DNA from: Panopea generosa
Lineage: Eukaryota > Mollusca > Bivalvia > Adapedonta > Hiatellidae
Assembly (NCBI GenBank): GCA_029582155.1
Contig: CM055898.1
Coordinates: forward strand, 28,268,745-28,332,744
Reading direction: 5' to 3'
DNA length: 64,000 nucleotides
The notes beneath the pieces are model-generated. The model saw only the letters and a list, made by a program, of their open reading frames with translations, ran no database searches and was not told the origin of the DNA. Positions 19,293-62,940 of this stretch are shown piece by piece. Position numbers and translations under genes: made by a program. Every line of letters starts with the position of its first letter. Positions within the stretch are counted from its first letter, which is position 1.

Positions 19293-19294
<2 letters not shown>

Positions 19295-19338
<44 letters not shown>

Positions 19339-19608: not shown

Positions 19609-19798
19609 TGAAAGTCAATTTAAACAAATAAAACGAAAACAATATAGGGACAAGACTATATAAAAATATCTTCAAATTATAATGACGAAAGCCAATGTCA
19701 TGTAATAATGGATACCAATGTCTTAACATCGTAATAGTATGATATAAATGAGTTATTTGAATGTATTTATTTATTTTCACACCATCTGCATATAACGA

Positions 19799-19995: not shown

Positions 19996-20907
19996 TATAC
20001 CATTATCATCTGTATTGATAATACAAGTTCGATGATATGTTTACAACTTTCACAAATAATAAACAAAATACAGACTGAAGATGGCTTGAATTTGGTATAC
20101 GGTATGTTAAAACTAATGTTGAGATGGGATGATCACGGATTGGGACATTAGTGACAAACAGAAAGTAATGTATACTTACAAATATTCTCGTCTTTACAGA
20201 GCATCGTTGCATGACGTTTTGTGATAAAAAGAAAATAGCCAGGATTTGTGTGATACGATATTAAATAAAAAAACATTTTATGATAAAATATTTTGAATTT
20301 ACGCCATTTGACAATCAGTGTTGAAAAGCCAGAATTCAAAATTTATATTAGTGGTTAAGTACGTATGTTATTTATTTAATTATTTAAATTATTCCGTAAC
20401 ATTCTTCAGTATTTGATTACAATTACATAATTTTTTATTTATTATCCTCAAAATCGCAAAATTTTAGACAATTTTCGTGCAAATCACAAATAAGAGAGAA
20501 CATTTTGATAAGACAATTTCCCTACATAAACATAAAAGTATTTCTATCTAATTGTTTTCAAATATCATTTTCGGAAGACATGCATTGCAAGATGGATTAC
20601 TCTTAGAAAATACAAAATGAAATTGCCATATGTTCAAGAATAGTTTTAAAACTCAAGAAATAGATCTACGACCGGATCGATTGTACAGTTCTGGCTATAT
20701 GAAAGCATGCTATTCGCCGTCTGTACAAGTATGTGTACTGTTACAAAATAGTATTATTCAATATTAAAAAAGTGTGGACATTCATACAGGACGGATGTTA
20801 ATTCATATTTTACCATACTCTAAATGCCTTTTTTAATTATAGTCCTACAAAACAAGTTGTTATTTTGAGTTATCATAGCTATATAGAAATGTACATTGTT
20901 TATATAA

Positions 20908-22382: not shown

Positions 22383-23012
22383 TCGCTTGTCTAATTTATA
22401 GCCTATAAACTCGTGTTTGTAAAAAACTAGATTAAATAAAACTGTATTGTAATCAATCCTTCAAAAACATTTTTCAGAGAAAATATCGATGCAATTTAAA
22501 TTGTAAACCATTTTAAACGGTACTAAAGATTCCTCTAACTTAGCAGTTGGATATTCATTGGCGTTCAGGATAATGATAAGTGGTATTCAATGACGTTCAG
22601 GATAATGATACATGTAAGTGATATTCAATGGCTGCTATAAACGTATTTATATATAAATCATGTATTTATTTTACGTAGTATATTTTGAATAAAGATTAAT
22701 AACTATAAATAAACTTTCGTAGTCAATTTATGAAGACCAATGCATCATGTAAATGTATTACACCAAACCTGTAATCTTGTAAAATTATTTAAGGAATTTT
22801 ATACTAAAACGACATGATATGTTTGTTGCAAAATAGAAACAATAAAACAGAGAAACATGAAGTGTCAATAAAATTCTTGACCAATAAAAAAAATATAACC
22901 ATCACTGGCCGCCAGGATCATGAGATTGTAATACTATCTAAACTTACTCTCGCAACTTATTAAATATCTGATAAATGTAAGCCATCGTGAGCACAGAACG
23001 CAACAAAGAAAA

Positions 23013-23164
23013 GACAACTCCGATCATGAGGGGTAATGGTAGACAACTCCGATCATGAGGGGTAATGGTAGACAACTCCGATCTCCGATCATGAGGGGTA
23101 ATGGTAGACAACTCCGATCATGAGGGGTAATGGTAGACAACTCCGATCATGAGGGGTAATGGTA
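23013..23164. repeat. 29-bp minisatellite, present only in duplicon 2
   Basis: About five copies of a unit starting GACAACTCCGATCATGAGG and continuing GGTAATGGTA; the third copy has an extra CGATCTC. Copy 1 has a single unit near 12247-12272, so the expansion followed the duplication. Confidence 0.9.
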
Positions 23165-23417
23165 GAAGCAACACACATCACGCCCTCCATCATTAAGAGA
23201 TGCTTTTCTATTTTTAGGCACACATCACCCGTTTAACAGGAAAACATTATACTTTTTCTACTTAAATGCACTCACTGTATCGACCTTTACCATGAGACTT
23301 AGTCAGCAAGTGAGCCAATGTTTTTATTTGTTTGTAAGAATCTGAATTACAATTCTGTTGAGAGATTTTTTCAAAAATGACTAATATTCAAGTCTATAGT
23401 GGTGTCACCAAATAATA

Positions 23418-23935
23418 TGTTCGACGCTTTGTTTTGTAGGTAATTTAATGAATGCAAAGTTTTCTCCAAAAACATGATGTTTTATCTACTGGCGGATATG
23501 TTACAAGTGCTCTCCACAAAGGTGATTTTGTTATTTGAATACACAAAGCAATGAGACATTCAGCATTTACTCCCGCTATTTCCCGTTTATTGCATCCAAT
23601 ATAAGGAGAGATGACATGTTAGAACTAGGAAAACCGCTAATAATTGAAAATCATGAAGAAAACAAAACATTTGCCTTCAATCAATTCTACTGAGCAATGT
23701 TTTAATTAAAAAATAAAAGGAATCCCCAATACAATTCTAGTTTAATCTAATTTAACTGAATTTTTAAAATGTAATTTAAAGCAATGGGTTTGGCTGTCAA
23801 ATATAAAGCCCTAGTGTTCTAAGTCATTTACAGAGAAATGTAATAGAATTCAATGACTACGATTGCCTTATTTGAATTCAAGTCGACGGGATATTTTTGT
23901 GTTTTACAATTTAAATCAAGAATGGCAACAGTAAA
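23418..23935 (+). repeat. Dispersed module R7, copy in duplicon 2
   Basis: Near-identical counterpart of 12537-13060. Confidence 0.85.
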
Positions 23936-25199
23936 GTTAGCATAGTAGTAAATATTTTCGTCCATATGAATAATGCATTTCGTATTCAGCGACCAAAATT
24001 ATTCCTTGAAGTGATTCCCAAATGATTGTAATATAAACTGTTGACGTTTGCAATGAGAATATAACAAGACATATTTATGAAAGATGAATAGAAAATCGAA
24101 TTCAAAATATCAACCGTTTATAACAAAAATCGTGAAAATGACAAATGATTAAGTCTTAATAAACCACACTGTGTATTTCCTCAGTTTTCATCTACAGAAG
24201 AACAGTCTTATCAACTTCATGTTTATCAAGTTACAACAATTTTACATAAAACTGAGACAAGATGAGCTTTAATGTGCTTAAACGTTTACTGATAGGCATA
24301 AGTGTATACGGTACATACAATTGGTTCTGTCTTTCTTAATAAAATAAAGTAAATTGAGTTCGGGTGCATTTTCAAAATATTTTAAACGTAAAATAGATTG
24401 GATGTTCATAATGTTCTTAAGATAAATAGATTAAAGAAATAAATACTACATGTAACCAAATCTGACACCAAAGTCATATTAACCTCGACAAAATCTCCAT
24501 CATTGGAATCAGAATGAAAAATACAAATAACAATTATTTTGATGTAGTGATATTCGAAAACGAGATATATGCGTACTTCTGAATCGTAACATATTGCTCA
24601 TAATTCATTGTTGACATAAACATGTGGTGGACATGAAAATGGAAAACCAATGGTAAATGCCATTATTTCATAGTGGGAATAGACAATAAATATAGGGCGA
24701 TGTTAATAGTTTGTTCATGTCTTGGTGTAAATATCAAATAAATATCTAAAACATGGTGAGATCTTAAAGCTTCTCCTACATGTCCATAGATACTCCCTAT
24801 AAAAACATGATTGACTTGACGTGAAAAGGACTATCGCTCCGCCCACTGGTCACGTGGCAGTGATTGTCCAAGTAAATACAATGTAAATTTTACTTAGACA
24901 TAGTTTGTTTGTCTAAGGAAAATGGCGACATAGCAACAAGCATCGATCACTGATTGGATAATCGACTTCTTTGAGTGACAGCCAGCGAAAGGTTAATTAG
25001 TATTTATCTTATTAAAATATCAAATTGTATTCCTTGCTCGACCTGTTATGAAGAGTTTATTTTCTTGAACTACATATATAGGACGATGTCTATTCAAATC
25101 TGGAGTTTTATTTAGATATCCAATGTACATTGACATCATTACGCCCAATTATGCTTCAAATTTCGTGTTTACTATAGCAAACTGTAAATTATATGTTTA

Positions 25200-25390
25200 T
25201 CCAAGCCCGGTTATCTCAGTGGAGGCGCGTCTGATTATCAATCCAGGGGTCGTGAGTTTAAATCGTGATGATATACAATATTGCTTCTCATTAACATTCG
25301 TCTCTCACCGCTGATTCAAATGGGAACCAGTAGTGGGAATCAGTATTTTGCGGGCATGGATGTGCTCGCTCTCTGTGGTAAGTCATTTTA
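25200..25390 (+). mobile_element. SINE-A relic, duplicon 2
   Basis: Counterpart of 14330-14510, sharing the same B-box mutations. It keeps GGTTATCTCAGTGGAGGCGCG. Confidence 0.8.
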
Positions 25391-25735
25391 ACAGATCTCT
25401 ACACAAACAGTCATATACAAATTTTTTGTCTCTTCTCTACTTCCAACCTTGAGCATGAATTCAAAATGTAAAAAGAAGCACCAACTGCATCAGTTGTTTT
25501 TTTTTAAAACGATTTAACAATAACATATATAAAATACCCAAATATTTACGAATAAAATTGTTATAAGATTCTATCTTCCGTTCTTATCCATATGTATACT
25601 TAATCTGACGTGTATGTATGTTAACTTTAAAATAAAATATGTTTGAATCATATACTAATACTATCAGATATATTGAAAATAACACTGATCGCACACGTCT
25701 AAGAACACACTGTAGCAGTCTCATTCAACACCTGC

Positions 25736-25737
<2 letters not shown>

Positions 25738-25785
<48 letters not shown>

Positions 25786-25798
25786 TAAGTGCGTAAGT
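25738..25798. repeat. (CGTG)n microsatellite, duplicon 2
   Basis: Purer CGTG run than its duplicon-1 counterpart, ending in GTAAGTGCGTAAGTGCC. Confidence 0.9.
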
Positions 25799-26630
25799 GC
25801 CTAAATGTAATAAAGAGCATATGGGTTGTGCTGGATTGTTCGTAAAAATATGTACTGTGAATGAATAAAAGTGTGAAGTGTTTAAAGCCTTTTTTACTTT
25901 CAGAATAATAATGCAAATCACATAAACATACATTAAAACGAGTAAATAAATAAAAGGTTTTGACGTCTATGTGAATCTAATGACAGTACCAACTGAGGTG
26001 TCAATTAAGCATTAATGACACGGCTCAGCCAACCTTGTATAAGGAGGAATATGAAGCGCGTGAAATAAATAGATGGATGTCAGAGTGACAAATGTTTCGG
26101 AAAGATTTGTCAATAGTTTTGAGAATATAATAATATATGAATAATATTGAATAAATCTTACTGGTAGACATCGAGAACGTGATCATTCAGAATAATTCCC
26201 TTTGAATATTTGAAATGAGTTGAAATATTAATTGATGTAAAATGATGAATTAATTTACTTTAATCTCAATTTTCTATTAACTGTACAAATTGCATGTCTG
26301 TATCTTGAATTATTGCTGTAGAGAAAGATGATAATCTGATGATCAATTGATATTAAAGTAAGAAGACTATTTACAGGTATGTCACTTGTTTGTATAGAGC
26401 TACAGATCCATTATTTAATATGTATACTAGATACCTATTTCGTAACTATTGTACTAAATAACATTCTTAACGATCAAACACGTTGCTCTTCTTATAAAGT
26501 CGCTTACATTTTTCAGTATAGAACATTCCATTTTACATAGAATGCCACGACCGCCAGTAAATGTTTACCTACTTCATCAGCCAATAAATAGCTCAAGGAA
26601 TGAGAAAGAAGACCAACGTCTAAGTAGATT

Positions 26631-27015
26631 AGAAGTTATATGGAATGTTGTACTTGCGATATAGAAGTTATATGGAATGTTCTACTTGCGATATAGAAGT
26701 TATATGGAATGTTGTACTTGCGATATAGAAGTTATATGGAATGTTGTACTTGCGATATAGGAGTTATATGGAATGTTCTACTTGCGATATAGGAGTTATA
26801 TGGAATGTTGTACTTGCGATATAGAAGTTATATGGAATGTTGTACTTGCGATATAGAAGTTATATGAAATGTTGTACTTGCGATATAGGAGTTATATGGA
26901 ATGTTGTACTTGCGATATAGGAGTTATATGGAATGTTCTACTTGCGATATAGGAGTTATATGGAATGTTGTACTTGCGATATAGAAGTTATATGGAATGT
27001 TCTACTTGCGATATA
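26631..27015. repeat. 32-bp satellite, duplicon 2 (about 12 copies)
   Basis: Same unit as 15769-16972 but only about 385 bp. It has its own variant TTCTACTTGC in several units and lacks the TTAGCGATAT insertion. Confidence 0.95.
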
Positions 27016-28559: not shown

Positions 28560-29400
28560 CCCACTTAGCTCGCTCACTAGAGCACGGTGGCGAACCAACG
28601 TGACTTAATGCTATGGAGTGGTGCACAAAATCGGAGAAAAAGTGCCCGCTTCAGGTACATTTTTGCAGATAACTTTCTTAATAGTTCATGAAAATTTACA
28701 GAAAAAAGATGAACTCCGTCTCCGTATAGAGTCAAACCACCGATAGTAACAAGTGGGCATTAAAATTCCTCGTATTTTTTACAAGAAAAAAATCTATCAA
28801 TCCAGGGGTCTTGAGTTCAAATTCCCGCTCAGCCATAGTCTCAGTAATGGATGATATACGAAATTGCGTCTCATTATCTTTCATCTATCAATGCTGATTC
28901 AAGTGGAAAGTTTTCAGTTACTTGCGATGTTGGACTGTGTTCGAGTAATGGTTAAACTTCCAGGATCCCAGGAAACAGTGGCTAGGTTAACTGATCGTTT
29001 GTTAGTCCTTAATGGCATAAACATGACGCTAAATATGCAATCAATCAAGTATTTGCAAGAGTGCAACGGCTTGTTTTTTGTTTGTTTTTTTTTTTTTGGA
29101 AATTGCACCACTCTATACCATAACCATCTCAACAGAGCACAAACCACCGTTGCACTTTTTGAAAATAATAAGTGGATTTTCATGCCCACTTGATATCACC
29201 GGTGGTTTTGCATGGTCATTTTACATAACCGATGGTTCGTCTCTATACAGAAATCGGTTGTCTTAAGTTGCGAATTTTCATGAAATATTAAGGAAGTTAT
29301 CTGCAAACATGTTACCTGAAGCGGGTATTTTTACTCCGACATTTTTACCACTCCATAGCATTAAGTTCCTCGGGTTCGCCATCTTGGAGATTAAGTGGAG
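28560..29400. mobile_element. Foldback element with a SINE relic inside
   Basis: The left arm (about 28560-28778) and right arm (about 29175-29400) are diverged inverted complements. Shared segments are ACTTAATGCTATGGAGTGGT, CCCGCTTCAGGTA, TTTGCAGATAACTT, TTCATGAAAATT, GTATAGAG, AACCACCG and CAAGTGGGCAT. Between them lies a SINE-A relic and a T-rich stretch. No clear target-site duplication. It is probably an old MITE or non-autonomous DNA transposon. Confidence 0.8.
28797..29047 (+). mobile_element. SINE-A copy, 5' truncated
   Basis: Starts in the anticodon-loop region (TATCAATCCAGGGGTCTTGAG), keeps a mutated B-box (GAGTTCAAATTCC), the body (AGTCTCAGTAATGGATGATA, ATGCTGATTCAAGTGG, CCAGGAAACAGTGGCTAGG, CTTAATGGCATAAACATGAC) and a short AATCAATC tail. 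It sits in the loop of the surrounding foldback. The frames at 28864-29193 and 28914-29189 are by-products. Confidence 0.82.
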
Positions 29401-38858: not shown

Positions 38859-38867
38859 AAAAAAACG
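38859..38867 (+). repeat. 9-bp target-site duplication, left (giant foldback)
   Basis: AAAAAAACG, identical to 54525-54533. The left side has one further A before it. The A-run makes chance matching easier than for a complex 9-mer, but its exact placement against both element ends is notable. Confidence 0.8.
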
Positions 38868-38902
38868 AGTTGCGTGAAGTTGGCTATGAGATCGGCAATC
38901 GG
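38868..38902 (+). repeat. Left terminal cap of the foldback (non-satellite)
   Basis: About 35 bp, starting AGTTGCGTGAAGTTGGC and continuing TATGAGATCGGCAATCGG, lie outside the satellite monomers. They occur only here and, inverted, at about 54490-54524. They are the best candidate transposase-recognition ends. Confidence 0.85.
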
Positions 38903-41900
38903 AGATCAACATTCAATACAGATCCAGGTCTGAGATCGTAGATCAACATTCAAAAAAAAAGTCAAAATTTGAATAACGACCCAGGTCTGCAATCGTAGAT
39001 CGACATTCAAAATAAAATTAAAAATACGGACAAAATTTGAATGCAGATCCAGGTCTGACATCGTAGATCAACATTCAAAATAAAAGTTAAAAGACGGACA
39101 AAACTTGAATACAGACCCAGGTCTGCAATCGTAGATCGACATTCAAAATAAAAGTTAAAAGACGGAGTTAACTTGAATGCAGATCCAGGTCTGAGATCGT
39201 AGATCAACATTCAAAATAAAAGTCGAAATTTGAATAACGACCCAGGTCTGCAATCGTAGATCGACATTCAAAATAAAATTAAAAATACGGACAAAATTTG
39301 AATGCAGATCCAGGTCTGAGATCGTAGATCGACATTCAAAATAAAATCTAAAATACGGACAAAACTTGAATACAGACCCAGGTCTGAGATCGTAGATCAA
39401 CATTCAAAATAAAAGTCGGAATTTGAATACCGACCCAGATCTGCAATCGTAGATCAACATTCAAAATAAAATTAAAAATACGGACAAAATTGGAATGCAG
39501 ATCCAGGTCTGAGATCGTAGATCAACATTCAAAAAAAAAGTCAAAATTTGAATAACGACCCAGGTCTGCAATCGTAGATCGACATTCAAAATAAAAGTTA
39601 AAAGACGGAGTTAACTTGAATGCAGATCCAGGTCTGAGATCGTAGATCAACATTCAAAATAAAAGTCGGAATTTGAATACCGACCCAGGTCTGCAATCGT
39701 AGATCGACATTCAAAATAAAATTAAAAATACGGACAAAATTTGAATGCAGATCCAGGTCTGACATCGTAGATCAACATTCAAAATAAAAGTTAAAAGACG
39801 GACAGAACTTGAATACAGACCCAGGTCTGAGATCGTAGATCAACATTCAAAATAAAAGTCGGAATTTGAATACCGACCCAGGTCTGCAATCGTAGATCGA
39901 CATTCAAAATAAAATCTAAAATAATGACAAAACTTGAATACAGACCCAGGTCTGCAATCGTAGATCGACATTCAAAATAAAAGAGAAAAGACGGAGTTAA
40001 CTTGAATGCAGATCCAGGTCTGACATCGTAGATCAACATTCAAAATAAAAGTCGGAATTTGAATACCGACCCAGGTCTGCAATCGTAGATCGACATTCAA
40101 AATAAAATTAAAAATACGGACAAAATTTGAATGCAGACCCAGGTCTGAGATCGTAGATCAACATTCAAAATAAAAGTCGAAATTTGAATACCGACCCAGG
40201 TCTGCAATCGTAGATCGACATTCAAAATAAAATTAAAAATACGGACAAAATTTGAATGCAGATCCAGGTCTGACATCGTAGATCAACATTCAAAATAAAA
40301 GTTAAAAGACGGACAAAACTTGAATACAGACCCAGGTCTGCAATCGTAGATCGACATTCAAAATAAAAGTTAAAAGACGGAGTTAACTTGAATGCAGATC
40401 CAGGTCTGAGATCGTAGATCAACATTCAAAATAAAAGTCGAAATTTGAATACCGACCCAGGTCTGCAATCGTAGATCGACATTCAAAATAAAATTAAAAA
40501 TACGGACAAAATTTGAATGCAGATCCAGGTCTGAGATCGTAGATCGACATTCAAAATAAAATCTAAAATACGGACAAAACTTGAATACAGACCCAGGTCT
40601 GAGATCGTAGATCAACATTCAAAATAAAAGTCGGAATTTGAATACCGACCCAGATCTGCAATCGTAGATCAACATTCAAAATAAAATTAAAAATACGGAC
40701 AAAATTTGAATGCAGATCCAGGTCTGACATCGTAGATCAACATTCAAAATAAAAGTTAAAAGACGGACAAAACTTGAATACAGACCCAGGTCTGCAATCG
40801 TAGATCGACATTCAAAATAAAAGTTAAAAGACGGAGTTAACTTGAATGCAGATCCAGGTCTGAGATCGTAGATCAACATTCAAAATAAAAGTCGAAATTT
40901 GAATACCGACCCAGGTCTGCAATCGTAGATCAACATTCAAAATAAAATTAAAAATACGGACAAAATTTGAATGCAGATCCAGGTCTGACATCGTAGATCA
41001 ACATTCAAAATAAAAGTTTAAAGACGGACAGAACTTGAATACAGACCCAGGTCTGAGATCGTAGATCAACATTCAAAATAAAAGTCGGAATTTGAATACC
41101 GACCCAGGTCTGCAATCGTAGATCGACATTCAAAATAAAATCTAAAATAATGACAAAACTTGAATACAGACCCAGGTCTGCAATCGTAGATCGACATTCA
41201 AAATAAAAGAGAAAAGACGGAGTTAACTTGAATGCAGATCCAGGTCTGACATCGTAGATCAACATTCAAAATAAAAGTCGGAATTTGAATACCGACCCAG
41301 GTCTGCAATCGTAGATCGACATTCAAAATAAAATTAAAAATACGGACAAAATTTGAATGCAGACCCAGGTCTGAGATCGTAGATCAACATTCAAAATAAA
41401 AGTCGAAATTTGAATACCGACCCAGGTCTGCAATCGTAGATCGACATTCAAAATAAAATTAAAAATACGGACAAAATTTGAATGCAGATCCAGGTCTGAC
41501 ATCGTAGATCAACATTCAAAATAAAAGTTAAAAGACGGACAAAACTTGAATACAGACCCAGGTCTGCAATCGTAGATCGACATTCAAAATAAAAGTTAAA
41601 AGACGGAGTTAACTTGAATGCAGATCCAGGTCTGAGATCGTAGATCAACATTCAAAATAAAAGTCGAAATTTGAATACCGACCCAGGTCTGCAATCGTAG
41701 ATCGACATTCAAAATAAAATTAAAAATACGGACAAAATTTGAATGCAGATCCAGGTCTGAGATCGTAGATCGACATTCAAAATAAAATCTAAAATACGGA
41801 CAAAACTTGAATACAGACCCAGGTCTGAGATCGTAGATCAACATTCAAAATAAAAGTCGGAATTTGAATACCGACCCAGATCTGCAATCGTAGATCAACA

Positions 41901-44900
41901 TTCAAATAAAATTAAAAATACGGACAAAATTTGAATGCAGATCCAGGTCTGACATCGTAGATCAACATTCAAAATAAAAGTCGGAATTTGAATACCGACC
42001 CAGGTCTGCAATCGTAGATCGACATTCAAAATAAAATCTAAAATACTGACAAAACTTGAATACAGACCCAGGTCTGCAATCGTAGATCGACATTCAAAAT
42101 AAAAGAGAAAAGACGGAGTTAACTTGAATGCAGATCCAGGTCTGACATCGTAGATCAACATTCAAAATAAAAGTCGGAATTTGAATACCGACCCAGGTCT
42201 GCAATCGTAGATCGACATTCAAAATAAAATTAAAAATACGGACAAAATTTGAATGCAGATCCAGGTCTGACATTGTAGATCAACATTCAAAATAAAAGTT
42301 AAAAGACGGACAGAACTTGAATACAGACCCAGGTCTGAGATCGTAGATCAACATTCAAAATAAAAGTCGGAATTTGAATACCGACCCAGATCTGCAATCG
42401 TAGATCAACATTCAAAATAAAATTAAAAATACGGACAAAATTTGAATGCAGATCCAGGTCTGAGATCGTAGATCAACATTCAAAAAAAAAGTCAAAATTT
42501 GAATAACGACCCAGGTCTGCAATCGTAGATCGACATTCAAAATAAAAGTTAAAAGACGGAGTTAACTTGAATGCAGATCCAGGTCTGAGATCGTAGATCA
42601 ACATTCAAAATAAAAGTTAAAAGACGGACAGAACTTGAATACAGACCCAGGTCTGAGATCGTAGATCAACATTCAAAATAAAATTAAAAATACGGACAAA
42701 ATTTGAATGCAGATCCAGGTCTGACATTGTAGATCAACATTCAAAATAAAAGTTAAAAGACGGACAGAACTTGAATACAGACCCAGGTCTGAGATCGTAG
42801 ATCAACATTCAAAATAAAAGTCGGAATTTGAATACCGACCCAGGTCTGCAATCGTAGATCGACATTCAAAATAAAATCTAAAATAATGACAAAACTTGAA
42901 TACAGACCCAGGTCTGCAATCGTAGATCGACATTCAAAATAAAAGAGAAAAGACGGAGTTAACTTGAATGCAGATCCAGGTCTGACATCGTAGATCAACA
43001 TTCAAAATAAAAGTCGGAATTTGAATACCGACCCAGGTCTGCAATCGTAGATCGACATTCAAAATAAAATTAAAAATACGGACAAAATTTGAATGCAGAC
43101 CCAGGTCTGAGATCGTAGATCAACATTCAAAATAAAAGTCGAAATTTGAATACCGACCCAGGTCTGCAATCGTAGATCGACATTCAAAATAAAATTAAAA
43201 ATACGGACAAAATTTGAATGCAGATCCAGGTCTGACATCGTAGATCAACATTCAAAATAAAAGTTAAAAGACGGACAAAACTTGAATACAGACCCAGGTC
43301 TGCAATCGTAGATCGACATTCAAAATAAAAGTTAAAAGACGGAGTTAACTTGAATGCAGATCCAGGTCTGAGATCGTAGATCAACATTCAAAATAAAAGT
43401 CGAAATTTGAATACCGACCCAGGTCTGCAATCGTAGATCGACATTCAAAATAAAATTAAAAATACGGACAAAATTTGAATGCAGAGTCCAGGTCTGAGAT
43501 CGTAGATCGACATTCAAAATAAAATCTAAAATACGGACAAAACTTGAATACAGACCCAGGTCTGAGATCGTAGATCAACATTCAAAATAAAAGTCGGAAT
43601 TTGAATACCGACCCAGATCTGCAATCGTAGATCAACATTCAAAATAAAATTAAAAATACGGACAAAATTTGAATGCAGATCCAGGTCTGACATCGTAGAT
43701 CAACATTCAAAATAAAAGTTAAAAGACGGACAAAACTTGAATACAGACCCAGGTCTGCAATCGTAGATCGACATTCTAAATAAAAGTTAAAAGACGGAGT
43801 TAACTTGAATGCAGATCCAGGTCTGAGATCGTAGATCAACATTCAAAATAAAAGTCGAAATTTGAATACCGACCCAGGTCTGCAATCATAGATCGACATT
43901 CAAAATAAAATTAAAAATACGGACAAAATTTGAATGCAGATCCAGGTCTGAGATCGTAGATCGACATTCAAAATAAAATCTAAAATACGGACAAAACTTG
44001 AATACAGACCCAGGTCTGAGATCGTAGATCAACATTCAAAATAAAAGTCGGAATTTGAATACCGACCCAGATCTGCAATCGTAGATCAACATTCAAAATA
44101 AAATTAAAAATACGGACAAAATTTGAATGCAGATCCAGGTCTGAGATCGTAGATCAACATTAAAAAAAAAAGTCAAAATTTGAATAACGACCCAGGTCTG
44201 CAATCGTAGATCGACATTCAAAATAAAATCTAAAATACGGACAGAAATTGAATACAGACCCAGGTCTGAGATCGTAGATCAACATTCAAAATAAAAGTCG
44301 GAATTTGAATACAGACCCAGGTCTGAGATCGTAGATCAACATTCAAAATAAAAGTTAAAAGGCGGACAGAACTTGAATACAGACCCAGGTCTGAGATCGT
44401 AGATCAACATTCAAAATAAAAGTTAAAAGACGGACAAAACTTGAATACAGACCCAGGTCTGCAATCGTAGATCGACATTCAAAATAAAAGTTAAAAGACG
44501 GAGTTAACTTGAATGCAGATCCAGGTCTGAGATCGTAGATCAACATTCAAAATAAAAGTCGGAATTTGAATACCGACCCAGGTCTGCAATCGTAGATCGA
44601 CATTCAAAATAAAATCTAAAATACTGACAAAACTTGAATACAGACCCAGGTCTGCAATCGTAGATCGACATTCAAAATAAAAGAGAAAAGACGGAGTTAA
44701 CTTGAATGCAGATCCAGGTCTGACATCGTAGATCAACATTCAAAATAAAAGTCGGAATTTGAATACCGACCCAGGTCTGCAATCGTAGATCGACATTCAA
44801 AATAAAATTAAAAATACGGACAAAATTTGAATGCAGACCCAGGTCTGAGATCGTAGATCAACATTCAAAATAAAAGTCGAAATTTGAATACCGACCCAGG

Positions 44901-46370
44901 TCTGCAATCGTAGATCGACATTCAAAATAAAATTAAAAATACGGACAAAATTTGAATGCAGATCCAGGTCTGACATCGTAGATCAACATTCAAAATAAAA
45001 GTTAAAAGACGGACAGAACTTGAATACAGACCCAGGTCTGAGATCGTAGATCAACATTCAAAATAAAAGTCGGAATTTGAATACCGACCCAGGTCTGCAA
45101 TCGTAGATCGACATTCAAAATAAAATTAAAAATACGGACAAAATTTGAATGCAGATCCAGGTCTGAGATCGTAGATCGACATTCAAAATAAAATCTAAAA
45201 TACGGACAAAACTTGATTACAGACCCAGGTCTGAGATCGTAGATCAACATTCAAAATAAAAGTCGGAATTTGAATAACGACCCAGATCTGCAATCTTAGA
45301 TCAACATTCAATGCAGATCCAGGTCTGAGATCGGAGATCAACATTCAAAATAAAAGTCGAAATTTGAATACCGACCCAGGTCTGCAATCATAGATCGACA
45401 TTCAAAATAAAATTAAAAATACGGACAAAATTTGAATGCAGACCCAGGTCTGAGATCGTAGATCAACATTCAAAATAAAAGTCGGAAATTGAATAACGAC
45501 CCAGATCTGCAATCGTAGATCAACATTCAAAATAAAATTAAAAATACGGACAAAATTTGAATGCAGATCCAGGTCTGACATCGTAGATCAACATTCAAAA
45601 TAAAAGTTAAAAGACGGACAAAACTTGAATACAGACCCAGGTCTGAGATCGTAGATCAACATTCAAAATAAAAGTCGGAATTTGAATACAGACTCAGGTC
45701 TGAGATCGTAGATCAACATTCAAAATAAAAGTTAAAAGACGGATAGAAATTGAATACAGACTCAGGTCTGACATCGTAGATCAACATTCAAAAGAAAGGT
45801 CAGAATTTGAATACCGACCCAGGTCTGCAATCGTAGATCGACATTCAAAATAAAATTAAAAAATACGGACAAAATTTGAATGCAGACCCAGGTCTGAGAT
45901 CGTAGATCAACATTCAAAATGAAAGTTAAAAGACGGACAAAATTTGAATAGAGACCCAGGTCTGAGATCGTAGATCAACATTCAAAATGAAAGAGAAAAG
46001 ACGGACAAAATTTGAATGCAGATCCAGGTCTGACATCGTAGATCGACATTCAAAATAAAAGTTAAAAGACGGATTTAACTTGAATGCAGACCCAGGTCTG
46101 AGATCGTAGATCAACATTCAAAATTTAAGAGAAAAGACGTACAAAACTTGAATGCAGAGTCAGGTCTGAGATCATAGATCAACATTCAAAATAAAAGTCG
46201 GAATTTGAATACAGACCCAGGTCTGAGATCGTAGACCTACATTCAAAATTAATGTTAAAAGACATACAGAAGTTGAATACAGACCCAGGTCTGAGATCGT
46301 AGATTAACATTCAAAATAAAATTGGAATTTGAATAACGACCCAGGACTGAGATCGTAGATTGACATTAAT
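38903..46370. repeat. Left arm satellite, 57- and 68-bp monomers
   Basis: Monomer core: CAGAYCCAGGTCTGNRATCG then TAGATCRACATTCAAAATAA. Linkers come in a few types: TTAAAAATACGGACAAAATTT, GTTAAAAGACGGAGTTAACTT, GAGAAAAGACGG, TCTAAAATACGG, and a short GTCGGAATTTG or GTCGAAATTTG. The short linker gives 57 bp and the long ones 68 bp. The core CAGACCCAGGTCTG is a near-palindrome, and GATC recurs. By length there are roughly 115 monomers. Larger blocks repeat almost unchanged, for example 40222 onward recurs at 41448 (offset 1226 bp) and at 43184 (offset 2962 bp). Reverse-strand frames of up to 88 codons are by-products. Confidence 0.95.
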
Positions 46371-46440
46371 CCCCCCCCCCCCACACACACACACACACCC
46401 ATCACCACCACACACACACACACACACACATACACACACA
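46371..46440. repeat. (C)n(AC)n tract at the inner edge of the left arm
   Basis: A poly-C run of about 12 followed by AC dinucleotides, interrupted by CATCACCACC. It separates clean monomers from decayed ones. Confidence 0.9.
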
Positions 46441-46905
46441 AGTCGTAATTAGAAAAACAAGCCAGGTTTGAGATCGTAAATCAACATTTACCTTTAATCA
46501 ATATTAAAATGTTAATGTAGTAGTTCGACATGTGATATTGTATACATAGTTCTACAATAGTACATCAGCATTCACAGTAATTGTTAGAAGTTGGATTTGA
46601 ATACAGTTCCATGTCTGCGATTCGTAAAAGCGTCATTTATAATGGTCAGAACGGAGAACAAATTTAAAATGTCGTGGTCGGAGCTGAATTTTCAACGATC
46701 AGTTCGAATATTGACTTTCAGATATAGAAGTTTCGATCGAAGATCCATATTTAAAAAAATTTCAGATCGAATAATAACATCAAAAAATAAGTTCAAATCT
46801 GACATCAACGTCGCAAAACGTTCATATCGATATGAAACAATTGGAGATCAACATTCGAGAAAAATTTCAGATTTGAGATTATCGTTTGAAGATTTTGGAA
46901 TTACA
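46441..46905. repeat. Decayed satellite monomers, inner edge of left arm
   Basis: Recognisable but strongly mutated monomers: AAGCCAGGTTTGAGATCGTA with AATCAACATT (46460s), TTGAATACAGTTCCATGTCT (46590s), and GGAGATCAACATTCGAG (46842). The 133-codon open frame at 46591-46992 lies in this decayed satellite and has no domain, so it is not called a gene. Confidence 0.8.
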
Positions 46906-47965
46906 ACTATAACAGAAAACAGTGTATTTTCGTGTTTCTTTTTTTTTTTGCTACCTTACTCCTCCCCTAAGAACTTTAAATTGGTGATTTAAAGATTATA
47001 CTTGTATATCATGAACAAAATATTAATAGAAGAACGTTGTTTAACGTTATAATAAAATGAAAACCGCGTAATAATAGAATAAAGTAAAATGGCAGACTCA
47101 AGTTAGTTAAGATATTCTTCTTTCGGTAACTGAGCATAATCCTAATCTTGATTACCCTCAGTGTTGAAGAGTTATTTTACTTGAATACTAGAAGACAGAA
47201 CGCGAGTAACAAACTGCTCAAATAGATATAAGTGGTACATTTCAAACAAATAGAAAAATCTCTACATAACTATAAGACTTTTAATGCACGTTCAATATTC
47301 ACTCTAAGAATGTTTCGTTGTTACATAAGATATAAGACCTGTGCAAGCATGACGTACATATTTTCAAGGAACGTTAGTTAAAATCATTGAAAGGAAATAA
47401 TTTCTGCTGATTTAAAAGCTAGTAAAATTCGATAAATATGTTTAAATCACGGTGAATGGCCGGTAAATAATTCCTCTACTTTTTCAGAACATTTGACGCC
47501 AATACGACACATGCCCAAAAAAAACATTCACTTACACTCAATCGCCGTTGTGATCTCTCTGTCAACTACACCGTACAAAATAAAAGGGACATTTTTGCTA
47601 ACAAATTTTAAATTATATTATTATAGTTCTCTTTAAACGATAGTACTGTTATGACAACCCACAAGTATTAGGATATTACGAAAGTATATCAGTATTTAAA
47701 GTTGAATAAAGTTCAAAAAGGAAGTTATAACCTCAAATACAATAATAAAAGTTATTTTTTTAATAAAATTAATTAGCCCGTAGACTGTGATCGTGTGCCA
47801 ATATTATACTCATTTGTTGAATAACTTGAATAATATAAATCCACTTATTGATTATGTTTGCATTTTAATAGTGACTCTTTCTCACCTAGCGTGAGATAAG
47901 TCATATCAAATGATAGGTACTTTAACAGTTAAAATGGCATATACAAGACAGTCAATTTTTTTATT
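46906..47965. other. Central spacer (loop) of the giant foldback
   Basis: About 1.06 kb, AT-rich, with no monomers and no open frame worth calling, including no transposase motif. It makes the element non-autonomous as seen here. It shows no inverted homology between its two sides. Confidence 0.7.
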
Positions 47966-50900
47966 TTGAATGTCGATCTACGATTGCAGACCTGGGTCTG
48001 TATTCAAGTTTTGTCCGTCTTTTAACTTTTATTTTGAATGTTGATCTATGATCTCAGACCTGGGTCTGTATTCAAGTTATGTCCGTCTTTTAACTTTTAT
48101 TTTGAATGTTGATCTACGATGTCAGACCTGGATCTGCATTCAAATTTTGTCCGTATTTTTAATTTTATTTTCAATGTCGATCTACGATTGCAGACCTGGG
48201 TCGGTATTCAAATTCCGACTTTTATTTTGAATGTTGATCTACGATCTCAGACCTGGATCTGCATTCAAGTTAACTCCGTCTTTTAACTTTTATTTTGAAT
48301 GTCGATCTACGATTGCAGACCTGGGTCTGTATTCAAGTTAACTCCGTCTTTTAACTTTTATTTTGAATGTTGATCTACGATGTCAGACCTGGATCTGCAT
48401 TCAAATTTTGTCCGTATTTTTAATTTTATTTTGAATGTTGATCTACGATTGCAGATCTGGGTCGTTATTCAAATTCCGAATTTTATTTTGAATGTTGATC
48501 TACGATCTCAGACCTGGTCTGTAATCAAGTTTTGTCCGTGTTTTAGATTTTATTTTGAATGTCGATCTACGATCTCAGACCTGGATCTGCATTCAAATTT
48601 TGTCCGTATTTTTAATTTTATTTTGAATGTCGATCTACGATTGGAGACCTGGGTCGGTATTCAAATTCCGACTTTTATTTCGAATGTTGATCTACGATCT
48701 CAGGACTGGGTCTGTATATAAGTTCTGTCCGTCTTTTAACTTTTATTTTGAATGTTGATCTACGATGTCAGACCTGGATCTGCATACAAGTTAACTCCGT
48801 CTTTTCTCTTTTATTTTGAATGTCGATCTACGATTGCAGACCTGGGTCTGTATTCAAGTTTTGTCATTATTTTAGATTTTATTTTGAATGTCGATCTACG
48901 ATCTCAGATCTGGATCTGCATTCAAATTTTGTTCGTATTTTTGATTTTATTTTGAATGTCGATCTACGATTGCAGACCTGGGTCGGTATTCAAATTCCGA
49001 CTTTTATTTTGAATGTTGATCTACGATCTCAGACCTGGGTCTGTATTCAAGTTCTGTCCGTCTTTTAACTTTTATTTTGAATGTTGATCTACGATGTCAG
49101 ACCTGGATCTGCATTCAAGTTCACTCCGTCTTTTCTCTTTTATTTTGAATGTCGATCTACGATTGCAGACCTGGGTCTGTATTCAAGTTTTGTCCGTATT
49201 TTAGATTTTATTTTGAATGTCGATCTACGATCTCAGACCTGGATCTGCATTCAAATTTTGTCCGTATTTTTAATTTTATTTTGAATGTCGATCTGGGTCG
49301 GTATTCAAATTCCGACTTTTATTTTGAATGTAGATCTACGATCTCAGACCTGGGTCTGTATTCAAGTTCTGTCCGTCTTTTAACTTTTATTTTGAATGTT
49401 GATCTACGATGTCAGACCTGGATCTGCATTCAAGTTAACTCCGTCTTTTTATTTTTTTATTTTGAATGTCGATCTACGATTGCAGACCTGGGCCTGTATT
49501 CAAGTTTTGTCCGTATTTTAGATTTTATTTTGAATGTCGATCTACGATTGCAGACCTGGATCTGCATTCAAATTTTGTGCGTATTTTTAATTTTATTTTG
49601 AATGTCGATCTACGATTGCAGACCTGGGTCGGTATTCAAATTCCGACTTTTATTTTTAATGTTGATCTACGATCTCAGACCTGGGTCTGTATTCAAGTTC
49701 TGTCCGTCTTTTAACTTTTATTTTGAATGTTGATCTACGATGTCAGACCTGGATCTGCATTCAAATTTTGTCCGTATTTTTAATTTTATTTTTGAATGTC
49801 GATCTACGATTGCAGACCTGGGTCGGTATTCAAATTCCGACTTTTATTTTGAATGTTGATCTACGATCTCAGACTTGGATCTGCATTCAAGTTAACTCCC
49901 TCTTTTAACTTTTATTTTGAATGTCGATCTACGATTGCAGACCTGGATCTGTATTCAAGTTTTGTCCGTCTTTTAACTTTTATTTTGAATGTTGATCTAC
50001 GATGTCAGACCTGGATCTGCATTCAAATTTTGTCCGTATTTTTAATTTTATTTTGAATGTCGTTCTACGATTGCAGACCTGGGTCGGTATTCAAACTCCG
50101 ACTTTTATTTTGAATGTTGATCTACGATCTCAGACCTGGGTCTGTATTCAAGTTCTGTCCGTCTTTTAACTTTTATTTTGAATGTTGATCTACGATGTCA
50201 GACCTGGATCTGCATTCAAGTTAACTCCGTCTTTTTATTTTTTTATTTTGAATGTCGATCTACGATTGCAGACGTGGGTCTGTATTCAAGTTTTGTCCGT
50301 ATTTTAGATTTTATTTTGAATGTTGATCTACGATTGCAGATCTGGGTCGTTATTCAAATTCCGACTTTTATTTTGAATGTTGATCTACGATCTCAGACCT
50401 GGGTCTGTATTCAAATTTTGTCCGTATTTTAGATTTTATTTTGAATGTCGATCTACGATCTCAGACCTGGATCTGCATTCAAATTTTGTGCGTATTTTTA
50501 ATTTTATTTTGAATGTCGATCTACGATTGCAGACCTGGGTCGGTATTCAAATTCCGACTTTTATTTTTAATGTTGATCTACGATCTCAGACCTGGGTCTG
50601 TATTCAAGTTCTGTCCGTCTTTTAACTTTATTTTGAATGTTGATCTACGATGTCAGACCTGGATCTGCATTCAAATTTTGTCCGTATTTTTAATTTTATT
50701 TTTGAATGTCGATCTACGATTGCAGTCCTCGGTCGGTATTCAAATTCCGACTTTTATTTTGAATGTTGATCTACGATCTCAGACCTGGATCTGCATTCAA
50801 GTTAACTCCGTCTTTTAACTTTTATTTTGAATGTCGATCTACGATTGCAGACCTGGGTCTGTATTCAAGTTTTGTCCGTCTTTTAACTTTTATTTTGAAT

Positions 50901-53900
50901 GTTGATCTACGATGTCAGACCTGGATCTGCATTCAAATTTTGTCCGTATTTTTAATTTTATTTTGAATGTCGTTCTACGATTGCAGACCTGGGTCGGTAT
51001 TCAAACTCCGACTTTTATTTTGAATGTTGATCTACGATCTCAGACCTGGGTCTGTATTCAAGTTCTGTCCGTCTTTTAACTTTTATTTTGAATGTTGATC
51101 TACGATGTCAGACCTGGATCTGCATTCAAGTTAACTCCGTCTTTTATTTTTTTATTTTGAATGTCGATCTACGATTGCAGACCTGCGTCTGTATTCAAGT
51201 TTTGTCCGTATTTTAGATTTTATTTTGAATGTCGATCTACGATCTCAGACCTGGATCTGCATTCAAATTTTGTCCGTATTTTTAATTTTATTTTGAATGT
51301 CGATCTACGATTGCAGACCTGGGTCGGTATTCAAATTCCGACTTTTATTTTTAATGTTGATCTACGATCTCAGACCTGGGTCTGTATTCAAGTTCTGTCC
51401 GTCTTTTAACTTTTATTTTGAATGTTGATCTACGATGTCAGACCTGGATCTGCATTCAAATTTTGTCCGTATTTTTAATTTTATTTTGAATGTCGATCTA
51501 CGATTGCAGACCTGAGTCTGTATTCAAGTTTTGTCCGTCTTTTAACTTTTATTTTGAATGTTGTTCTACGATGTCAGACCTGGATCTGCATTCAAATTTT
51601 GTCCGTATTTTTAATTTTATTTTGAATGTTGATCTACGATTGCAGATCTGGGTCGGTATTCAAATTCCGACTTTTATTTTGAATGTTGATCTACGATCTC
51701 AGACCTGGGTCTGTATTCAACTTCTGTCCGTCTTTTAACTTTTATTTTGAATGTTGATCTACGATGTCAGACCTGGATCTGCATTCAAGTTAACTCCTTC
51801 TTTTCTCTTTTATTTTGAATGTCGATCTACGATTGCAGACCTGGGTCTGTATTCAAGTTTTGTCCGTATTTTAGATTTTATTTTGAATGTCGATCTACGA
51901 TCTCAGACCTGGATCTGCATTCAAATTTTGTGCGTATTTTTAATTTTATTTTGAATGTCGATCTACGATTGCAGACCTGGGTCGGTATTCAAATTCCGAC
52001 TTTTATTTTTAATGTTGATCTACGATCTCAGACCTGGGTCTGTATTCAAGTTCTGTCCGTCTTTTAACTTTTATTTTGAATGTTGATCTACGATGTCAGA
52101 CCTGGATCTGCATTCAAATTTTGTCCGTATTTTTAAGTTTATTTTTGAATGTCGATCTACGATTGCAGACCTGGGTCGGTATTCAAATTCCGACTTTTAT
52201 TTTGAATGTTGATCTACGATGTCAGACCTAGATCTGCATTCAAATTTTGTCCGTATTTTTAATTTTATTTTGAATGTCGATCTACGATTGCAGATCTGGG
52301 TCGGTATTCAAATTTCGACTTTTATTTTGAATGTTGATCTACGATCTCAGACCTGGATCTGCATTCAAGTTAACTCCGTCTTTTAACTTTTATTTTGAAT
52401 GTCGATCTACGATTGCAGACCTGGGTCTGTATTCAAGTTTTGTCCGTCTTTTAACTTTTATTTTGAATGTCGATCTACGATGTCAGACCTGGATCTGCAT
52501 TCAAATTTTGTCCGTATTTTTAATTTTATTTTGAATGTTGATCTACGATTGCAGACCTGGGTCGTTATTCAAATTCCGACATTTATTTTGAATGTTGATC
52601 TACGATCTCAGACCTGGGTCTGTATTCAAATTTTGTCCGTATTTTAGATTTTATTTTGAATGTCGATCTACGATTTCAGACCTGGATCTGCATTCAAATT
52701 TTGTGCGTATTTTTAATTTTATTTTGAATGTCGATCTACGATTGCAGACCTGGGTCGGTATTCAAATTCCGACTTTTATTTTTAATGTTGATCTACGATC
52801 TCAGACCTGGGTCTGTATTCAAGTTCTGTCCGTCTTTTAACTTCTATTTTGAATGTTGATCTACGATGTCAGACCTGGATCTGCATTCAAATTTTGTCCG
52901 TATTTTTAATTTTATTTTTGAATGTCGATCTACGATTGCAGACCTGGGTCGGTATTCAAATTCCGACTTTTATTTTGAATGTTGATCTACGATCTCAGAC
53001 TTGGATCTGCATTCAAGTTAACTCCCTCTTTTAACTTTTATTTTGAATGTCGATCTACGATTGCAGACCTGGATCTGTATTCAAGTTTTGTCCGTCTTTT
53101 AACTTTTATTTTGAATGTTGATCTACGATGTCAGACCTGGATCTGCATTCAAATTTTGTGCGTATTTTTAATTTTATTTTGAATGTCGATCTACGATTGC
53201 AGACCTGGGTCGGTATTCAAATTCCGACTTTTATTTTTAATGTTGATCTACGATCTCAGACCTGGGTCTGTATTCAAGTTCTGTCCGTCTTTTAACTTTT
53301 ATTTTGAATGTTGATCTACGATGTCAGTCCTGGATCTGCATTCAAGTTAACTCCGTCTTTTCTCTTTTATTTTGAATGTCGATCTACGATTGCAGACCTG
53401 AGTCTGTATTCAAGTTTTGTCCGTATTTTAGATTTTATTTTGAATGTCGATCTACGATCTCAGACCTGGATCTGCATTCAAATTTTGTCCGTATTTTTAA
53501 TTTATTTTGAATGTTGATCTACGATTGCAGATCTGGGTCGTTATTCAAATTCTGACTTTTATTTTGAATGTTGATCTACGATGTCAGACCTGCATCTGCA
53601 TTCAAATTTTGTCCGTATTTTTAATTTTATTTTGAATGTTGATCTACGATTGCAGATCTGGGTCTGTATTCAAATTCCGACTTTTATTTTGAATGTTGAT
53701 CTACGATCTCAGACCTGGGTCTGCATTCAAATTTTGTCCGTATTTTTAATTTTATTTTGAATGTCGATCTACGATTGCAGACCTGGGTCGGTATTCAAAT
53801 TCCGACTTTTATTTTGAATGTTGATCTACGATGTCAGACCTGCATCTGCATTCAAATTGTGTCCGTATTTTTAATTTTATTTTGAATGTTGATCTACGAT

Positions 53901-54489
53901 TGCAGATCTGGGTCTGTATTCAAATTCCGACTTTTATTTTGAATGTTGATCTACGATCTCAGACCTGGGTCAGTATTCAAATTCCGACTTTTATTTTGAA
54001 TGTTGATCTACGGTCTCAGACCTGGGTCTGTATTCAAGTTCTGTCCGCCTTTTAACTTTTATTTTGAATGTTGATCTACGATGTCAGACCTGGATCTGCA
54101 TTCAAATTTTGTCCGTATTTTAAATTTTATTTTGAATGTCGATCTACGATTGCAGACCTGGGTCGGTATTCAAATTCCGACTTTTATTTTGAATGTTGAT
54201 CTACGATCTCAGACCTGGGTCTGTATTCAAGTTCTGTCCGTCTTTTAACTTTTATTTTGAATGTTGATCTACGATCTCAGACCTGGGTCTGTATTCAAAT
54301 TCCGACTTTTATTTTGAATGTTGATCTACGATCTCAGACCTGGGTCTGTATTCAATTTCTGTCCGTATTTTAGATTTTATTTTGAATGTCGATCTACGAT
54401 TGCAGACCTGGGTCGTTATTCAAATTTTGACTTTTTTTTTGAATGTTGATCTACGATCTCAGACCTGGATCTGTATTGAATGTTGATCT
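47966..54489. repeat. Right arm satellite, inverted orientation
   Basis: Reverse complement of the left arm monomers: TTATTTTGAATGTYGATCTA then CGATYNCAGACCTGGRTCTG. By length roughly 100 monomers. It begins abruptly at its inner edge with well-preserved monomers, unlike the graded decay on the left. Block duplications are present, for example 49723-49908 recurs at 52849-53034 (offset 3126 bp). Forward frames of up to 150 codons are by-products. Confidence 0.95.
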
Positions 54490-54524
54490 CCGATTGCCGA
54501 TCTCATAGCCAACTTCACGCAACT
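54490..54524 (-). repeat. Right terminal cap of the foldback
   Basis: Exact inverted complement of 38868-38902, ending GCCAACTTCACGCAACT at 54524. Confidence 0.85.
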
Positions 54525-54533
54525 AAAAAAACG
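54525..54533 (+). repeat. 9-bp target-site duplication, right (giant foldback)
   Basis: AAAAAAACG, identical to 38859-38867, immediately after the right terminal cap. Confidence 0.8.
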
Positions 54534-62246: not shown

Positions 62247-62532
62247 AAGCCGGGCCCGATTAGCTCAGTCGGTTACGCGTCTGACTATCAATCCAGGGGT
62301 CGTGAGTTCGAATCCCCCGCCCGGCAACAGTCTCCGTGATGATTGATATACGACATTGTGTCTCATTATCATTCGTCTCTCACCACTGATTCAAGTGGGT
62401 AAGTTATCAGTTACTTGCGGAGATGGGGTGTGCTCGAGTACTGGTTAAGCCCAGGAAACAGTGGTTAGGTTAACTGATCGTCTGTTAGCCCTCGATGGCA
62501 TAAGAATGACGCTAAATATTCAATCAATCAAT
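62247..62532 (+). mobile_element. Complete SINE-A with 11-bp target-site duplication
   Basis: The tRNA-like head runs 62249-62326: acceptor strands GCCGGGC and GCCCGGC pair perfectly, the A-box is TTAGCTCAGTCGG and the B-box is GAGTTCGAATCCC. The anticodon stem is degenerate, so it is a SINE head and not a tRNA gene; by memory the D- and T-arms look Lys-like. The body contains CAGTCTCCGTGATGATTGAT, CATTCGTCTCTCACCACTGA, TTCAAGTGGGTAAG, CCAGGAAACAGTGGTTAGG and CCTCGATGGCATAAGAATGA, ending in an AATCAATC tail. Exact direct repeats flank it. Confidence 0.93.
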
Positions 62533-62543
62533 CAATCTAAAAT
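62533..62543 (+). repeat. Target-site duplication, right (SINE-A)
   Basis: CTAAAATTTAA, directly after the AATC tail. Confidence 0.88.
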
Positions 62544-62700: not shown

Positions 62701-62702
<2 letters not shown>

Positions 62703-62731
<29 letters not shown>

Positions 62732-62940
62732 ATTTAGCGTCAATTTATGTCATCGAGGGCTAACAGGCGAAAAGTTTACCTAATCACTGTGATCAGTACT
62801 CAACCACACCCCATCTCCGCAAGTAACTGATAACTCTCCCATTTGAATCAGTGGTAAGAACGAATGATAATGAGACGCAATGCCGTATATCAATCATCAC
62901 GGAGACTGTGACCGAGCGGGGATTCGAACTCACGATCCCA
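62703..62940 (-). mobile_element. SINE-A copy, 5' truncated, inverted
   Basis: Reverse-strand copy with an ATTG (AATC) tail of about seven units at its left end. It keeps the T-arm (GAGTTCGAATCCCCGC) but stops at GATCGTGAG-type sequence, lacking the A-box half of the head. With 62247-62532 it forms a tail-to-tail inverted pair separated by about 170 bp. Confidence 0.88.

What the first reader, a model, noticed from the sequence alone, without database searches (positions are those of the whole stretch)
38868..54524. A 15.7-kb foldback transposon whose inverted repeats are whole satellite arrays
Seen: two arrays of the same 57/68-bp monomer in opposite orientation, perfect 151-bp inverted ends with a non-satellite cap (AGTTGCGTGAAGTTGGC), an exact 9-bp direct repeat AAAAAAACG flanking both caps, and flanks with no inverted homology. 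Known: Drosophila Foldback elements have tandem-repeat-built inverted repeats and 9-bp duplications. Inference: this is a Foldback-like, non-autonomous DNA transposon, far larger than typical ones, and a route by which satellites spread as mobile units.
Basis: partly seen in the sequence, partly recalled or inferred. Interest (0 to 1): 0.92.

Follow-up and report, generated by a model that had tools for sequence, protein, structure and literature searches.

The report
Foldback transposon with satellite-array arms
The window holds one copy of a young family of jumping DNA whose two ends are whole satellite-repeat arrays facing each other, and one copy elsewhere in the same genome carries a block of other DNA between two such elements, so satellites and their neighbours can apparently move as units.

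Summary
The 17-bp cap occurs 230 times exactly in the host genome (1.47 Gb, bivalve-like); the pattern read backwards occurs 0 times. Among the first 100 caps listed (C1 to C8:7.97 Mb), neighbours within 60 kb are 32 convergent, 0 divergent and 2 same-strand; 36 caps are unpaired. Both ends of 35 cap pairs were read: 32 have exact 9-bp target duplications, all different; one has 1 mismatch; two have none. Sizes with exact duplications run from 59 bp to 30.9 kb, plus a 33.4-kb composite. Two copies on C8 with different duplications share 8.1 kb of arms and core at 99.7%: kilobase arrays moved whole.

Contig C24 has two complete elements around 15.7 kb of other DNA, with one shared outer duplication. 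The captured block ends exactly at the inner caps; a second copy on C4 has neither element: a natural composite resembling Ising's Drosophila TE.

Foldback elements with tandem-repeat ends, and satellites born from them, are known (Tetris, Tm1). Scale, size range, array mobility and the composite are the new parts. No transposase was tied to the caps; superfamily membership stays open.

The parts
38859..38867 (.). left target-site duplication AAAAAAACG
38868..38884 (+). left cap AGTTGCGTGAAGTTGGC, without match to the satellite monomer
38868..39018 (+). left half of the perfect 151-bp inverted end; element positions 22-49 match the monomer at 24 of 28 bases
38868..46370 (+). left arm: satellite array of 57/68-bp monomers, about 117 monomers
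46371..47957. core (my 'type A'), 1,587 bp, first part containing decayed monomer-like pieces to about 46,900 (by eye); no coding capacity recognised; its last 991 bp occur full length or nearly so at 38 loci at 96-100%, this one included (40 of 92 candidates scored)
47958..54524 (-). right arm: the same satellite in inverted orientation, about 102 monomers
54374..54524 (-). right half of the perfect 151-bp inverted end
54508..54524 (-). right cap
54525..54533 (.). right target-site duplication AAAAAAACG

Best explanation
The feature is one copy of a foldback-type, non-autonomous cut-and-paste DNA transposon family. A transposase supplied in trans (inferred; not found) recognises the cap and the sequence next to it and inserts the unit with a staggered 9-bp cut. 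SHOWN: inverted caps, a different exact 9-bp duplication at each of 32 insertion sites, and kilobase arrays shared between copies at different sites. SHOWN: the monomer carries a 28-bp stretch matching the sequence next to the cap at 24 of 28 bases. INFERRED: the arms arose by tandem amplification of that stretch and may give many transposase-binding sites. SHOWN: arm lengths vary between closely related copies; INFERRED: by unequal exchange. SHOWN on C24: two complete elements and the DNA between them share one outer duplication; INFERRED: the outermost ends were used together, moving the block as a composite transposon.
For: 230 exact caps, 0 for the reversed control. Neighbour orientation within 60 kb among the first 100: 32 convergent, 0 divergent, 0 ++, 2 --. 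Exact 9-bp duplications in 10 of 10, 2 of 2 pairs completed, 2 of 3 and 18 of 20: 32 of 35, all 32 different; 0 of 380 in the cross-pair control. Eight of 8 core loci inspected have + satellite before and - satellite after the core (the window's own copy is one of them; 8 of 40 scored). Copies C8:7.96 (TSD AAATTTATT) and C8:5.21 (TSD TAGTAAATA) share 8,119 bp, arm-core-arm, at 99.73%; C15:42.87 and C15:39.51 share 3,402 bp at 99.85%. Monomer/terminus match 24 of 28. A 59-bp element of two caps with TSD GTTTATTTA. A 30,867-bp element with an exact duplication, whose 6 samples of 150 bp are all satellite in the expected orientation. Composite: outer TSD ACCAATTTA on both sides; captured block begins at TCATTCACA and ends at GATATATCG exactly at the inner caps; the C4 copy (98% over 2,467 bp) has no element at either junction.
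Against: No autonomous copy found: none of the 58 MULE-domain matches in the stretch covered by the cap list lies within 60 kb of a cap, and one young MULE family inspected has other ends. Thirty-six of the first 100 caps have no exact partner within 60 kb; for at least four of them a core lies 3-10 kb inside (C3:90.82, C5:28.13, C6:5.77, C6:12.82), so a decayed partner is likely there, but the others are unexplained. Two of 35 pairs have no duplication (C1:77.44; C4:68.27, 36 kb, perhaps not a true pair) and one has a mismatch. Only exact caps were searched, which favours intact young copies. Arms of one element are no more alike than arms of different elements (median k-mer containment 0.47 within, 0.47 between), so they do not evolve in concert, though one copy (C2:72.18) has a 518-bp perfect end.
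Confidence: 0.93

Rival explanations
1. The C24 structure is not a composite transposition. Two elements flanked the block at its source, homologous recombination between them released a circle of block plus one element, and that circle recombined into a resident element that already had the duplication ACCAATTTA.
For: Gives the same junctions: inner 9-mers single, outer one shared. Repeated arrays are good recombination substrates; array lengths change between close copies, and the end type sits on opposite sides of the core in C5:4.55 and in the window copy.
Against: Needs two recombination events and a free circle instead of one transposition. In Drosophila such composites do transpose (Ising TE, cited in PMC6431247, passages read).
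Confidence: 0.25
2. The arrays grew after insertion: only short elements move, and each copy then expands its arms in place into satellite.
For: Arm lengths differ widely (2.1-11.3 kb in 11 elements); a 59-bp copy exists; the Tetris paper suggests that larger arrays may have disrupted transposition (PMC4079207, passages).
Against: Copies with different duplications share multi-kb arrays in the same order at 99% or more (8,119 bp at 99.73%, 4,100 bp at 99.02%, 3,402 bp at 99.85%), so the arrays existed before the copies separated. Growth and shrinkage after insertion may add to this.
Confidence: 0.06
3. An inverted duplication of a satellite array, or an assembly fold-back artefact, with a chance 9-bp match.
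For: Inverted arrays exist as such, and A-rich 9-mers can match by chance.
Against: Arms are only about 84-86% alike in their best-scoring long alignments; 32 of 35 pairs repeat the pattern with different duplications; 0 of 380 control matches.
Confidence: 0.01
4. A Helitron/Helentron carrying satellite, a known vehicle of satellite-like arrays in the Pacific oyster (PMC7492417, title and abstract start in the listing).
For: Bivalve-like host, dispersed arrays.
Against: Perfect terminal inverted repeats and exact 9-bp duplications; Helitrons have no TIR and make no target duplication (recalled).
Confidence: 0.01

Closest known systems
Tetris (Drosophila virilis; PMC4079207, passages read)
   Same: Non-autonomous foldback element, tandem repeats inside the TIRs, 8-10 bp duplications, a stretch shared by terminal domain and monomer, satellite arrays derived from it, no autonomous copy found
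   Different: Monomer about 220 bp; TIRs up to 1,735 bp; three structurally complete copies; its authors suggest larger arrays may have disrupted mobility. Here arms are 2.1-11.3 kb in 11 measured elements and an estimated 20 kb in one sampled element, 32 cap pairs have exact duplications, and long arrays are shared between insertion sites
Tm1 (Meloidogyne; PMC3169594, passages read)
   Same: Composite TIRs built of tandem units, variable arm length, mostly 9-bp duplications without clear consensus, most copies without transposase
   Different: About 14-bp units; asymmetric end motifs outside the TIR; a copy encoding a Phantom-type Mutator transposase was identified, here none
Drosophila Foldback (FB/NOF), recalled
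   Same: Inverted repeats made of short tandem repeats, 9-bp duplications, variable loop
   Different: Smaller; its transposase-coding partner is known; no sequence relation tested
Ising's composite TE of Drosophila (cited in PMC6431247, passages read)
   Same: DNA lying between two foldback elements moves as a unit
   Different: Hundreds of kb and visible cytologically; here 33.4 kb at sequence level with an unoccupied copy of the block elsewhere
Galileo (P superfamily, foldback-like; PMC3688188, title and abstract start in the listing)
   Same: Long inverted ends resembling Foldback elements, with several transposase-binding sites
   Different: Different superfamily; 7-bp duplications (recalled)

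Membership tests
Foldback-type DNA transposon (structural class) | Inverted repeats built largely of tandem repeats, variable in length | tested here: met
   11 elements measured, arms 2.1-11.3 kb
Foldback-type DNA transposon (structural class) | Target-site duplication of about 9 bp | tested here: met
   32 of 35 exact, all different
Foldback-type DNA transposon (structural class) | Many insertions with unrelated flanks | tested here: met
   Terminal 193 bp matched on 13 contigs; 230 exact caps; the 1.5-kb flanks of the three left-end loci L001, L002 and L007 gave no alignment to each other
Mutator/Phantom (FB-NOF) superfamily | MULE-domain transposase bearing the same ends | tested here: inconclusive
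   134 PF10551 matches, 150 of 329 candidates scored; 58 of them in the stretch covered by the cap list, nearest cap 65 kb; the other 76 not tested because the list stops at C8:7.97 Mb, except two copies of one family inspected, which have other ends
Mutator/Phantom (FB-NOF) superfamily | Terminal sequence homologous to known members | not tested
   no library of transposon ends on hand
P superfamily (Galileo-like) | 7-8 bp duplication and THAP transposase (recalled) | tested here: not met
   duplications are 9 bp; transposase not searched
Helitron/Helentron | No target-site duplication, no terminal inverted repeats (recalled) | tested here: not met
   both present
Ising-type composite transposon | Two foldback elements and the DNA between them share one outer target duplication, inner junctions unpaired | tested here: met
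   C24
Ising-type composite transposon | A locus carries the block without the elements | tested here: met
   C4, about 96.086-96.096 Mb, both junctions unoccupied
Ising-type composite transposon | Repeated movement of the same composite | tested here: inconclusive
   only one other full match of the block's 2,467-bp piece seen, and it has no elements; 40 of 5,997 candidates scored

The most novel reading that the evidence does not exclude
A family of foldback transposons in a bivalve-like genome in which mobility does not depend on arm length, so one pair of caps moves anything from 59 bp to over 30 kb. Whole satellite arrays are the transposon's arms and may act as transposase-binding platforms. 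Pairs of elements can pick up the DNA lying between them, other satellites included, and carry it to new places. The C24 composite, which carries an unrelated 28-bp satellite array, would then show a transposon dispersing two satellites at once.
Probability: 0.55. Interest if true: 0.8.

Novelty: new variant of a known kind. Interest (0 to 1): 0.72.

Why it matters
How satellites spread through euchromatin is an old question. For the foldback element Tetris the proposed answer is that the transposon seeds short repeats which later expand, long arrays being thought to hinder movement (PMC4079207, passages). Here multi-kb arrays with near-identical sequence sit at different insertion sites, each with its own duplication, so arrays themselves moved. 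The C24/C4 pair gives a sequence-level natural case that looks like composite foldback transposition, with an unoccupied source-like locus to compare. High identity between copies suggests recent activity, so empty-site polymorphism in a population would be an easy test.

Tried and rejected
Looked for a coding core: in six cores only one 127-134 aa frame recurs, without a Pfam match in the window copy. Examined a young MULE family as possible partner: different ends. Tested whether the arms of one element homogenise each other: no. Looked for a recognisable gene in the captured C24 block: of two frames tested, one of 187 aa gave only a sub-threshold Pfam match (Peptidase_A22B, E 0.022, below the cut-off) and the other nothing; the block is mostly a 28-bp and a 24-bp tandem array. 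Rfam found one marginal tRNA match, outside the element. Wanted the full list of 230 caps and an empty site for the composite in the same genome: the search tool did not complete. Literature: searches listed 10, 7, 4 and 14 papers, of which I read passages of Tetris, Tm1, one review and one on giant transposons. Narrower searches on foldback elements in molluscs failed. I therefore make no claim that this family is undescribed.

Full report
Observation. The arms are 7,503 and 6,567 bp with about 117 and 102 monomers, and the core is 1,587 bp. After the first monomers the arms are out of register, and their best-scoring long alignments are about 84-86% identical.

Genome context. The window lies in a 1.474-Gb assembly of 39 contigs at C5:28,268,745-28,332,744. 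A DnaJ-like protein from elsewhere in this genome (L038) has its best named matches in Mactra antiquata (77%) and Dreissena polymorpha (75%), so the host is bivalve-like; it is not identified.

A mobile family. A search with the terminal 193 bp gave 105 matches from 40 scored of 1,078 candidates; the 40 that reach the cap are 97-100% identical. I fetched nine further loci. With the window copy, 10 of 10 have perfect inverted caps and exact, different 9-bp duplications, with sizes from 9.75 to 33.4 kb. Of four more loci fetched in part, two could be completed and both have exact duplications; a third was completed later (exact), and the partner of the fourth, on C13, was not reached. The exact cap occurs 230 times (111 forward, 119 reverse) and 0 times read backwards. 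Only the first 100 places are listed, from C1 to C8:7.97 Mb. Among these, neighbours within 60 kb are +/- in 32 cases, -/+ in 0, +/+ in 0 and -/- in 2; 36 caps are unpaired, at least four of them with a core 3-10 kb inside. All 32 convergent pairs were tested: 29 have exact 9-bp duplications, one has 1 mismatch (C4:2.13), and two have none (C1:77.44, 1,260 bp; C4:68.27, 36 kb). With three pairs outside the list (C24 outer, two on C15) the total is 32 exact of 35, all 32 different; cross-pairing the 20 left with the 20 right flanks gave 0 exact and 0 one-mismatch matches of 380. Among the 32 duplications A at position 2 (20) and T at position 8 (18) stand out, and the A+T content is 76%.

Size range. 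The smallest element with a duplication is 59 bp, two caps with a few bases between (C4:58.9, TSD GTTTATTTA). It may have moved as such, or have lost its arms after insertion. The largest simple one is 30,867 bp (C6:85.11, TSD CAATTTACT). Six 150-bp samples of it are all satellite, one plus before and five minus after the core hit at C6:85,118,162; the rest of it was not read, so 'simple' rests on these samples.

Cores. The last 991 bp of the window's core gave 41 matches from 40 scored of 92 candidates, 38 of them full length or nearly so at 96-100%, the window's own included. Eight of these loci were inspected, the window's own among them, and 8 of 8 have inverted arrays on both sides. Among the fetched elements, four share only about the first 876 bp of this core (C15:42.87, C15:39.51, C8:7.96, C8:5.21) and two have shorter pieces of it (C5:4.55, C5:51.49); the other half of the C8:5.21 core also occurs in C24's second element (703 bp at 99.3%). 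C6:40.31 has a core without match to the others. None of those looked at has recognisable coding capacity. So the caps and arms are the constant part.

Whole arrays move. C8:7.96 and C8:5.21, with different duplications, share 8,119 bp through arm, core and arm at 99.73%; C15:39.51 shares 4,100 bp with C8:5.21 at 99.02%; C15:42.87 and C15:39.51 share 3,402 bp at 99.85%. Array lengths differ between these copies, so the arms also grow or shrink. Arms of one element are no more alike than arms of different elements (median 36-mer containment 0.47 within; 0.47, 0.49 and 0.47 between for L-L, R-R and L-R), apart from C2:72.18 with a 518-bp perfect end. The end type lies on opposite sides of the core in C5:4.55 and in the window copy, which suggests recombination between arms (inference).

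Origin of the monomer. Positions 22-49 of the element match the monomer at 24 of 28 bases, while the cap itself does not match. The monomer thus carries a version of the sequence beside the cap. That it is a transposase-binding site is inference, by analogy with Galileo and with the shared 37-bp stretch of Tetris.

The composite. On C24 the outer caps share ACCAATTTA, but inside lie two complete elements (7.9 and 9.7 kb) in the order + - + - with 15,741 bp between them. The block begins TCATTCACA at the inner cap of the first element and ends GATATATCG at the inner cap of the second. A 2,467-bp piece of it has one other full match in the genome, C4:96,087,316-96,089,778, at 98% (40 of 5,997 candidates scored, the other 38 matches listed covering only about the first 480 bp, an abundant repeat). 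At C4 the block runs on without a cap at both junctions...GATGC|TCATTCACA... on one side and ...GATATATCG|TCCATATT... on the other. The C4 stretches fetched hold no cap with up to 3 mismatches except one 3-mismatch look-alike several kb outside the block; about 220 bp of the C4 block were not seen. Identity near the two edges is 98.2% over 110 bp and 96.4% over 669 bp, so the assembled C4 copy is a relative or allele of the source, not necessarily the source itself. The 28-bp array inside is about 10.4 kb in C24 and 4.5 kb in C4. The plain reading: on a chromosome not in the assembly two elements inserted at those two 9-mers, and the block with both elements then moved to C24. A circle-and-recombination route would leave the same junctions and is kept as a rival.

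What is known. Foldback elements with tandem-repeat inverted ends and 9-bp duplications are an established kind, and Tetris already showed a satellite born inside one (PMC4079207, passages). Tm1 ties such ends to a Phantom-type transposase (PMC3169594, passages). Ising's TE ties foldback elements to the movement of the DNA between them (PMC6431247, passages). This family therefore works like them. Membership in Mutator/Phantom is not shown: 134 MULE-domain matches exist (150 of 329 candidates scored), but of the 58 in the stretch covered by the cap list the nearest to a cap is 65 kb away; the rest could not be tested.

Verdict. Observation confirmed; interpretation supported; a new variant of a known kind, whose scale, array mobility and composite are the surprising parts.

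Noticed in passing
window 7117-16976 and 16970-27015: Adjacent direct duplication of roughly 10 kb (main pieces 83-95% identical), including a 32-bp tandem array, TGCG repeats and GTTAGT-type arrays.
   Followed up: no
window 19320-19609, 28794-29048, 62248-62537, 62701-62939: Related dispersed repeats (78-86% identical), two of them beside ATTG runs, one reading like a tRNA-derived SINE (SINE nature recalled, not tested).
   Followed up: no
L037:1722-4908 and L038:1537-4712: A different young MULE-domain family (two copies about 99% identical; eight matches of the same score in the genome) with its own short terminal tandem repeats but other ends.
   Followed up: partly
host genome C4:68.27-69.45 Mb: Cluster of eight exact caps, several on the same strand; the one convergent pair within 60 kb there (36 kb) has no duplication, so this may be a rearranged region.
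   Followed up: no
L051 (C1:77442977-77444236): 1,260-bp element whose inverted arrays meet directly, without core and without a duplication.
   Followed up: no
32 target duplications in the host genome: Weak palindromic preference: A at position 2 in 20 of 32 and T at position 8 in 18 of 32.
   Followed up: no
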